Source: Marinomonas sp. UCMA 3892 | GTDB lineage: Bacteria; Pseudomonadota; Gammaproteobacteria; Pseudomonadales; Marinomonadaceae | DNA length: 64,000 nucleotides | NCBI RefSeq assembly: GCF_012726345.1 | Contig: NZ_PTXN01000001.1 | Span: 1-64,000 of the forward strand | Reading direction: 5' to 3' | Shown here: positions 7,512 through 9,386 of the stretch, one piece after another | Numbering within the stretch: the first letter of the stretch is position 1 | Layout: every line of letters starts with the position of its first letter | Made by a program: the position numbers and the translations under genes | Notes under the pieces: model-generated | The model's database searches: none | What the model was told of the DNA's origin: nothing | Seen by the model: only the letters and a program-made list of their open reading frames with translations

Positions 7512-7772
7512 ATGACAGTAAAACGTTTTATCGCAGGGGCGGTGTGCCCTCGTTGTAGTGAGATGGATAAGATTCGTGCATGGCGTGATGATGACGCTGA
7601 AAAGCAATATCGTGAGTGCATTTCCTGTGGTTACACGGATGAGCAGTCTACGACGGTTCAAGCGCAACCAACTGAAATTCCAACGCGAGTGAATACGCCT
7701 CACAGCAGCGCTCCTCAAGCGGAAGAAATGGTGATTAATTTTATCCCGAATCCGGGTTCGACCAAGCACTAG
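7512..7772 (+). CDS. yheV: YheV-family zinc-ribbon protein
   Basis: An 86-residue small protein with two CxxC knuckles (CPRC at 16-19 and CISCGY at about 39-44) forming a zinc ribbon. The N-terminus MTVKRFIAGAVCPRCSEMD is the hallmark of the YheV family. The C-terminal half is Pro/Thr/Gln-rich and probably flexible. Its function is unknown. Its position just downstream of prlC is conserved in many gammaproteobacteria, as far as I recall. A TAGCTAGGGTT sequence precedes the ATG, a weak ribosome site. Confidence 0.9.
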   Translation: MTVKRFIAGAVCPRCSEMDKIRAWRDDDAEKQYRECISCGYTDEQSTTVQAQPTEIPTRVNTPHSSAPQAEEMVINFIPNPGSTKH

Positions 7773-7800
7773 ATTATTACAAGTTAGAGGGATCTTTATT

Positions 7801-8517
7801 GTGAAAATGATAGTGGAAGTGATTGGAAAGGTTGAGCAAGGTTATAGCAATCCATATGAGTGTCTAGATGAGGATGGGAATTCTTTTATTGTTAAAGGCT
7901 TGCCTCGCTCGAGTCAAATTAATGAGTGGATATGTGCTAATTTAGCATCGGCATTTGGTCTTCCTATTGCAGAATACGAGCTGGTTGAAATACCTGAAGA
8001 ACTCTATTTTGAATTAGATTTTGATACTCAGTTTGACCTAGGATGCGGCCCTATTTTTGGTTCGAAGAAGATCCAGTTGGCGCAGTGGTTTGAGCCTAAA
8101 ACGATGCAGCATATCGTCACTGAAGAGGAAAAGTTAAAGATTTTTCTTTTTGATTATTGGGTGAAAAACGCTGATAGAAATAGTGATAATACGAACCTTT
8201 TGGTTAGTGATAGGCGTATCCGAGTTATAGATCACAATAATGCTTTTGATAAAAAATACACTAGAGATGATGTTTTTGGTCATCTTTTTTATGATCAGAT
8301 TGACAGAAAATTGCTCAGCGATTTGGTTTTTAGAGCTGAGTTAAGTGGATAGATTGAAGATATTTTACTTAATTTAAATAACATTATTGGCTCTCTGCCA
8401 GAAGAATGGCAGTATAGTGATTCACCTATAAATACACTTAAAGCAGATGTTGATCTTGTTGCCATAGAGAACACTTTAAGCCGTTATACTGACGATGATT
8501 TTTGGTTTTTTGTATGA
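7801..8517 (+). pseudogene. HipA-like kinase-family gene interrupted by one in-frame TAG (intact ORF ends at 8352)
   Basis: The first 183 codons encode a HipA-like (HipA_2-type) protein: N-terminal beta-rich region with FIVKGLPRSSQINEWICANL, then kinase-like motifs NADRNSDNTN and VIDHNNAFD, the probable catalytic and metal-binding positions. A TAG at 8350-8352 stops it. The same frame then stays open for 54 more codons (IEDILLNLNN, SLPEEWQ, DDDFWFFV) and ends at 8515-8517 with a TGA overlapping the next gene's ATG as ATGA. The preserved frame and coupling show that the full gene was about 238 codons. It is either a recent nonsense mutation, amber readthrough, or a sequence error. Start GTG 7801 has AGAGGG upstream; ATG 7807 is an alternative. 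No HipB-like gene is adjacent. Confidence 0.8.
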
Positions 8518-9329
8518 AAAAATATGCTTGCAAATACGTTGTTCTACGCTTTGCTCCCTATAGTGAAACTGGTGAGTTTGCTAATGTGGGCGTACTTCTT
8601 TATTCAAAAAACCATAACTCCTTCGTATTCAAGTTAGATACTACTGATATTGGTGCTAGGGTCTCAAAATTTTTTCATATTGATGATAGGCAAGTGTTCA
8701 AATTTGCAATGACATCTTATCAAAAAGAGTTGGCTTTTGTTCAAGAACAAGTCGTTCATCATCACATGACTGCAGAAGAGGCATTTGATTTTTTGGTTAA
8801 ACCTCGTGCAACTTTGTTGCGTTTCAGTGAAGTTCGAACTGTTATAACGGACTCAATTGACGGAACACTTAATAGTGTATTTGCTCGTATGGTCAGTCAT
8901 AGCTCAGCCTCTCAGGTCAAAAGTAGGCTAAAACTAGCTGGTATCTTAAGATCTCAACTTGATTCGCTTTGTCTTGAATACCCTTTTAAACGGCATAAGT
9001 TTTCAAAAAGCGTCTTTGAAGTAACCTATGACTTTACTCAGTTAAGTGAGCAAGGTGAGCCATTGAAGTTGATACAGCCTATTGAAATAAACGACAAACT
9101 TACTGCAAAAGAAATTTTTGAGGTAGTAGGTAACAATGAAGTTCGTTTAAATCGTATGGCTAGCTTAGACTTACTTCCTAAGAAGGTTCTTCTTCCGTTT
9201 TCTTTGAGTGAAAATAGGACTAAAGAAGCAGATGAGGCTTGGTCTATTGTTAAAAGCGAGTTGATAAATATTGGTGAATTAGTCGACATTCATAATAAAT
9301 CTGCTATTGAGAAATTTGCAAAGCATTGA
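8514..9329 (+). CDS. DUF3037 domain-containing protein
   Basis: A 271-residue soluble protein. The N-terminus (CKYVVLRFAPYSETGEFANV, followed by GVLLY) matches the DUF3037 family, which is often encoded right after HipA-like kinase genes; its biochemical role is unknown. The ATG at 8514 overlaps the stop of the upstream HipA-like frame (ATGA), which decides this start over an upstream TTG at 8502. If the upstream TAG really terminates translation, coupling from that gene is lost and expression of this one may fall. Both genes are visibly richer in A/T codons than prlC or the amylosucrase gene around them, a hint of transfer. Confidence 0.85.
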   Translation: MKKYACKYVVLRFAPYSETGEFANVGVLLYSKNHNSFVFKLDTTDIGARVSKFFHIDDRQVFKFAMTSYQKELAFVQEQVVHHHMTAEEAFDFLVKPRATLLRFSEVRTVITDSIDGTLNSVFARMVSHSSASQVKSRLKLAGILRSQLDSLCLEYPFKRHKFSKSVFEVTYDFTQLSEQGEPLKLIQPIEINDKLTAKEIFEVVGNNEVRLNRMASLDLLPKKVLLPFSLSENRTKEADEAWSIVKSELINIGELVDIHNKSAIEKFAKH

Positions 9330-9347
9330 TTAGATGTAGTCGAACAT

Positions 9348-9386
9348 AAAAAAGCGGATCTACTTTATAGTAAGTCCGCTTTTTTG
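9348..9386. terminator. Bidirectional terminator between DUF3037 gene and amylosucrase gene
   Basis: The stem AAAAAAGCGGA / TCCGCTTTTTT has a 16-base loop, and A/T runs on both sides let it serve both convergent genes. Confidence 0.85.

What the first reader, a model, noticed from the sequence alone, without database searches (positions are those of the whole stretch)
7801..8517. HipA-like kinase gene split by a single amber codon with its frame fully preserved
The TAG at 8350-8352 is followed in the same frame by 54 family-like codons and then a stop that overlaps the DUF3037 start as ATGA. A decayed gene usually gathers several lesions; here there is only one. This means a very recent nonsense mutation, suppression or readthrough of TAG, or a base-call error. 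The HipA-like/DUF3037 pair itself has no known function, and a switchable kinase would be interesting.
Basis: partly seen in the sequence, partly recalled or inferred. Interest (0 to 1): 0.62.

Follow-up and report, generated by a model that had tools for sequence, protein, structure and literature searches.

The report
Phage-defence toxin gene with recent stop
A marine bacterium carries a known two-gene phage-defence (toxin-antitoxin) module whose toxin kinase has recently been broken by one stop codon, which looks like an ordinary loss of function rather than a new kind of gene switch.

Summary
Pfam HipA_2 runs through both halves. Five other Marinomonas species align without gaps over all 238 codons and have a sense codon at 184 (CAG three times, CAA, CAT). 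The TAG is therefore a lesion of this genome, not conserved recoding. Few changes have gathered on either side of it, so it is probably young. I found no amber-suppressor tRNA (75 tRNAs, not the full set) and no PylS over cut-off; 13 of 50 long ORFs in the window end in TAG. Most likely reading: toxin inactivation with the antitoxin frame kept. M. rhizomae has an independent nonsense codon at 92 of the same gene. Across my samples I met eight further kinase lesions or losses against two in HipD, a weak excess. Ordinary to mildly interesting.

The parts
7787..7791 (+). Shine-Dalgarno-like GAGGG before the kinase GTG
   Evidence: read from the sequence; inference
7801..8349 (+). HipA-like kinase (HipA of HipAD), residues 1-183 before the stop; holds the catalytic-type motifs (F117 D118 N123 D125 R126 N130 N132 and I143 D144 H145 N146 invariant in A3)
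   Evidence: PF20613 E 1.7e-55; PDC-M66A 1.5e-16; alignment A3
8350..8352 (+). in-frame TAG at codon 184, a lesion of this genome; sense codon in the five other Marinomonas copies
8353..8514 (+). remaining 54 kinase codons, frame kept; hold invariant P200 and W203; in the model they form the end of helix 175-189 and four further helices
   Evidence: PF20613 E 1.3e-9; A3; model pLDDT 86.7
8514..9329 (+). HipD (DUF3037), 271 aa, intact; antitoxin/neutraliser by homology
   Evidence: PF11236 E 2.4e-21; PDC-M66B 5.4e-17; single copy in the genome; 271 aa in all six Marinomonas loci
9348..9385 (.). terminator-like inverted repeat with T run; in four empty-site relatives examined it lies close behind yheV
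7773..9347 (+). extent of the hipA-hipD cassette between the yheV stop and the terminator
   Evidence: 5 of 48 Marinomonas genomes match the cassette interior; empty sites
7512..7772 (+). yheV-type zinc-ribbon gene (DUF2387/TIGR02443), left neighbour

Best explanation
This is a chromosomal HipAD (PDC-M66 / DS-6) phage-defence module of the toxin-antitoxin type. Its toxin, the HipA-like kinase, has been inactivated by one recent nonsense mutation at codon 184, while the antitoxin gene hipD stays open. In an intact module the kinase would block growth of infected cells and HipD would hold it in check (shown in print for homologues, inferred here). The stop cuts a helix in half and removes the C-terminal helices with an invariant Pro and Trp, so the 183-residue product is probably unfolded or inactive (inferred from alignment and model). 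HipD has no clear ribosome-binding site and starts at the ATGA overlap, so its translation is probably lowered as well (inferred). The module is likely silent in this strain.
For: Family and pair identity. Function of homologues: passages of PMC12548924 (deleting the kinase abolishes defence, deleting DUF3037 is toxic) and PMC13092281 (a predicted catalytic residue of DS-6A is needed). Sense codon in 5 of 5 Marinomonas relatives and no other lesion. Youth: differences private to the window are 6 synonymous and 2 non-synonymous before the stop, 1 and 0 after it; pairwise dN/dS is 0.09-0.16. Independent parallel loss in M. rhizomae, TAA at codon 92. C-terminal invariants P200 and W203; helix 175-189 interrupted. 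Lesions elsewhere: G708 TAG and G440 frameshift, Salmonella phage SW-37 frameshift, IS3 insertion in E. coli 1335KP, IMG/VR 2880324937 insertion and 2895828830 frameshift, and kinase deleted beside a kept hipD in 3300026276.
Against: No reads and no second strain of this species, so an assembly error is not excluded. No expression or activity data; a truncated kinase could keep some activity, because the catalytic motifs lie before the stop. HipD itself is broken in 2 of 93 IMG/VR contigs (2627853678, 3300005086), so lesions are not confined to the toxin. Too few private changes (7 synonymous in the kinase) to date the lesion well.
Confidence: 0.85

Rival explanations
1. Base-call or assembly error: the gene is intact in the living strain.
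For: A single change in an otherwise clean frame with low dN/dS is what an error would look like.
Against: The assembly is of good quality by completeness and contamination; the same gene has an independent nonsense codon in M. rhizomae and lesions elsewhere, so real lesions occur in this gene.
Confidence: 0.07
2. Amber suppression or programmed readthrough yields some full-length kinase, making it a low-level or switchable product.
For: The frame after the stop is kept and is near-unchanged (1 private synonymous difference, 0 non-synonymous in 54 codons).
Against: Sense codon in 5 of 5 relatives; no CTA anticodon among 75 tRNAs (Ile-GAT, Ala-TGC and Ser-GGA tRNAs were not among them, so the set is incomplete); no PylS over cut-off; 13 of 50 long ORFs in the window end in TAG; no notable RNA fold after the stop. 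A recent mutation explains the kept frame equally well.
Confidence: 0.03
3. The 183-residue kinase is a working short form that co-operates with HipD.
For: The catalytic-type motifs lie before the stop.
Against: Intact relatives keep the C-terminal part; P200 and W203 are invariant in 26 of 26 aligned rows, and P219, W222, L236 and W245 (numbering of L088) in 18 of 18 rows of A1; the model shows the stop inside a helix.
Confidence: 0.05

Closest known systems
HipAD / DS-6 / PADLOC PDC-M66 phage-defence module
   Same: HipA-like kinase gene followed by a DUF3037 gene with overlapping stop and start; both proteins match the PDC-M66A/B profiles
   Different: The kinase frame here has a TAG at codon 184. 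DS-6B is described with DUF3037 and DUF1829; only DUF3037 was found over cut-off in this HipD
Retron-Sda1 HipA-DUF3037 pair (PMC12548924, passages)
   Same: same two domains; kinase as toxin, DUF3037 as neutraliser
   Different: no retron reverse transcriptase was looked for beside this cassette; the neighbours are yheV and a glycoside-hydrolase-like gene
HipBA and HipBST toxin-antitoxin kinases
   Same: HipA-type kinase fold; HipT, HipA and related kinases are among the structure matches, below PI4K type II and CtkA in rank
   Different: sequence similarity to solved HipT/HipA-type kinases is not significant (best E 0.26); the partner is DUF3037, not HipB

Membership tests
HipAD / PDC-M66 | HipA_2-type kinase | tested here: met
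   PF20613 240 bits on the read-through frame, cut-off 27; PDC-M66A E 1.5e-16 on residues 1-183
HipAD / PDC-M66 | adjacent DUF3037 gene | tested here: met
   PF11236 76.6 bits, cut-off 22.6; PDC-M66B E 5.4e-17; ATGA overlap
HipAD / PDC-M66 | complete kinase reading frame | tested here: not met
   TAG at codon 184: this is a broken member; the intact relatives are full members
HipAD / PDC-M66 | kinase toxic, relieved by HipD; defends against phage | not testable with these tools
   known for homologues from passages of PMC12548924 and PMC13092281
Amber-recoded gene (suppressor tRNA or pyrrolysine) | TAG conserved at the site in relatives | tested here: not met
   sense codon in 5 of 5 Marinomonas
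Amber-recoded gene (suppressor tRNA or pyrrolysine) | CTA-anticodon tRNA or PylS in the genome | tested here: inconclusive
   none among 75 tRNAs, set incomplete; four PylS matches, none over cut-off

The most novel reading that the evidence does not exclude
Toxin-dead HipAD loci are a recurrent and selected state: the kinase is lost by many independent lesions while hipD is kept, so that HipD acts as an anti-addiction or immunity factor against HipA kinases brought in by prophages and plasmids. The window and M. rhizomae would be two independent cases within one genus.
Probability: 0.1. Interest if true: 0.55.

Novelty: new member of a known kind. Interest (0 to 1): 0.25.

Why it matters
As a single locus it matters little: one more defence toxin gene knocked out in one strain. 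It gives a caution for annotation, since genome pipelines will list a short kinase or a pseudogene next to an intact antitoxin. If the excess of kinase lesions over HipD lesions holds in larger samples, it would be genomic evidence that the kinase carries a cost and that HipD is retained for its own sake, and the two Marinomonas lesions give a natural pair for testing it.

Tried and rejected
Readthrough or recoding was tested and not supported. 'Homologues end at residue 183' was tested and rejected. A Klebsiella phage hit that seemed to end at residue 187 is a full-length frame with a weak C-terminal alignment. L227, whose stated match holds a stop, is an intact frame with the stop before its start, on a contig that ends behind the kinase; it was not counted as a lesion.

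A strict rule 'only the kinase breaks' was rejected: HipD is broken in two IMG/VR contigs. Leaving the window out, kinase against HipD is 8 to 2, one-sided p 0.037 for the length share 243/516; without the E. coli insertion and the orphan HipD it is 6 to 2, p 0.11; within whole genomes alone it is 3 of 19 against 0 of 19, p 0.23. These are samples of convenience and I looked for kinase lesions first. The IMG/VR lists were capped (80 kept of 203 kinase relatives, 80 of 108 HipD relatives), and each scan needs one conserved motif, so lesions that remove the motif are missed. In E. coli, 283 of 5,426 genomes carry the pair, nearly all at 99% identity or more; I saw feature names for 60 best and 60 spread rows of the 283, among which only 1335KP shows a split kinase. 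Genome G233 (L018) was set aside because it is partly masked and both genes look damaged. G338 has an intact kinase, and its HipD matches only positions 2-161 of 273 in a 235-aa frame; I count it as a shorter variant, which is a choice. Nine of the 22 plasmid records were fetched.

A paper search for broken toxins in toxin-antitoxin systems gave nothing of use. A search for the name HipAD found only PMC13092281 on this subject among 13 papers.

Full report
What is there. The frame at 7801-8514 is a HipA-like kinase gene interrupted by a single TAG at 8350-8352, followed by 54 codons and a TGA that overlaps the start of a DUF3037 gene as ATGA. PF20613 (HipA_2) matches residues 4-181 before the stop at E 1.7e-55 and residues 2-52 of the downstream 54 at E 1.3e-9, contiguous in the profile (1-184, then 189-238 of 240). 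The DUF3037 protein is complete (271 aa) and is the only PF11236 match of the genome.

What the relatives show. Five Marinomonas species (arctica, rhodophyticola, rhizomae, hwangdonensis, spartinae) hold the pair at the same place, with no gap over 238 codons. Codon 184 is CAG in three, CAA in one and CAT in one. M. rhizomae has its own nonsense codon, TAA at codon 92, where three of the others have CAG, as does the window, and M. spartinae has CCA. HipD is 271 aa in all six. Pairwise dN/dS of the kinase is 0.09-0.16. Differences private to the window are 6 synonymous and 2 non-synonymous before the stop, 1 and 0 after it. The gene was therefore under constraint until recently, though so few changes do not date the event well.

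Cassette. The pair matched in 5 of 48 Marinomonas genomes by DNA and in 5 of 35 by profile. In four genomes whose sites I read in detail, yheV is followed within about 25 bases by the terminator that lies behind hipD in the window. So this is a patchily distributed insert between yheV and its terminator. Plasmid and phage relatives exist: 22 plasmid records and 3 phage records. One lambdoid phage carries the pair annotated as HipA toxin and HipD antitoxin between cI and kil.

What it is. Both proteins match PADLOC PDC-M66A/B. I read passages of two papers. In PMC12548924 the HipA-DUF3037 pair of the Retron-Sda1 operon defends against phage Bas51; deleting the kinase ends defence, and deleting DUF3037 is toxic. 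In PMC13092281 DS-6, renamed HipAD, needs a predicted catalytic residue of its kinase, and AlphaFold3 predicts that the two proteins bind. The term DUF3037 occurs in 3 papers of the library.

Mechanism proposed. Shown: one nonsense codon, intact hipD, sense codon in relatives. Inferred: the 183-residue product is inactive, because the stop lies inside helix 175-189 of a good model (mean pLDDT 86.7, pTM 0.87) and removes the four helices behind it, and because P200 and W203 are invariant in 26 rows. Also inferred: hipD translation is lowered, because it starts at the overlap without a clear ribosome-binding site. The module is then silent, which costs the cell a defence but spares it a toxin.

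Is it recoding? No support. Besides the sense codons in relatives, none of 75 tRNAs found by ARAGORN in 20 stretches has a CTA anticodon. The set is incomplete: the profile search scored 150 of 319 candidates, and Ile-GAT, Ala-TGC and Ser-GGA are missing from it. PylS has four weak matches, none over its cut-off; of the 14 control genomes, 13 ring and one is over the cut-off. In the window 13 of 50 ORFs of 150 aa or more end in TAG, this one included (a mechanical list that may hold false ORFs). The RNA after the stop folds no better than shuffles (z -0.90).

How common are such lesions? With profiles of intact kinases and HipD proteins I judged frames. Whole genomes gave 20 pairs. The kinase frame is broken in 4 of 20: window, M. 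rhizomae, G708 with TAG at the place of the invariant Trp, and G440 with a frameshift. HipD has no frame break in 20, one being short (G338). G233 was set aside. Twelve plasmid and phage records gave 1 broken kinase (phage SW-37) and no broken HipD, one HipD being cut by the record end. IMG/VR gave 93 contigs, 91 with both genes in 47 clusters at 95% identity: 2 broken kinases, 1 further contig with the kinase deleted beside an intact HipD, and 2 broken HipD genes (tolerance checked). E. coli: 283 of 5,426 genomes, one IS3 insertion in the kinase among the rows seen. Leaving out the window this is 8 to 2, p 0.037 one-sided; stricter counts give p 0.11 and 0.23. The excess is suggestive, not established.

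Family placing. By structure the best matches are type II PI 4-kinases, then CtkA and HipA/HipT-type kinases, all with modest TM-scores; by sequence no solved structure is a significant match (best E 0.26). The protein is a HipA_2 kinase, not a close relative of HipA of HipBA.

Verdict. Confirmed observation; ordinary explanation: a recent nonsense mutation in the toxin of a known defence module, with an assembly error as the only practical rival.

Noticed in passing
7801-9329: The pair is a mosaic: the window kinase is 94% identical in DNA to M. rhodophyticola (93-94% to the arctica group) and 89% to M. rhizomae, whereas its hipD is 94% identical to M. rhizomae and 84% to the arctica group; flanking prlC is 85-86% in these. 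Alleles seem to be exchanged within the cassette.
   Followed up: partly
codons 155-185 (8263-8355): Amino-acid differences among the six Marinomonas kinases cluster here, just before the TAG.
   Followed up: no
L010:4001-5698: M. rhizomae has further genes between prlC and yheV: a 153-aa frame with a weak, below-cut-off HipA_C match (E 6.1e-6) and a HIRAN-domain frame, with a 168-aa frame without Pfam match before them. A second kinase-type cassette a short way upstream of the first.
   Followed up: partly
L146 (E. coli 1335KP): An IS3 element splits the HipAD kinase; hipD is intact.
   Followed up: partly
L018 (G233): The kinase frame is lost near profile position 190 and a piece of the DUF3037 start appears twice; the locus is partly masked, so it may be an assembly fault.
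   Followed up: partly
L088 (Escherichia phage PhiR5_1): HipAD sits between cI and kil of a lambdoid phage and is annotated HipA toxin and HipD antitoxin.
   Followed up: no
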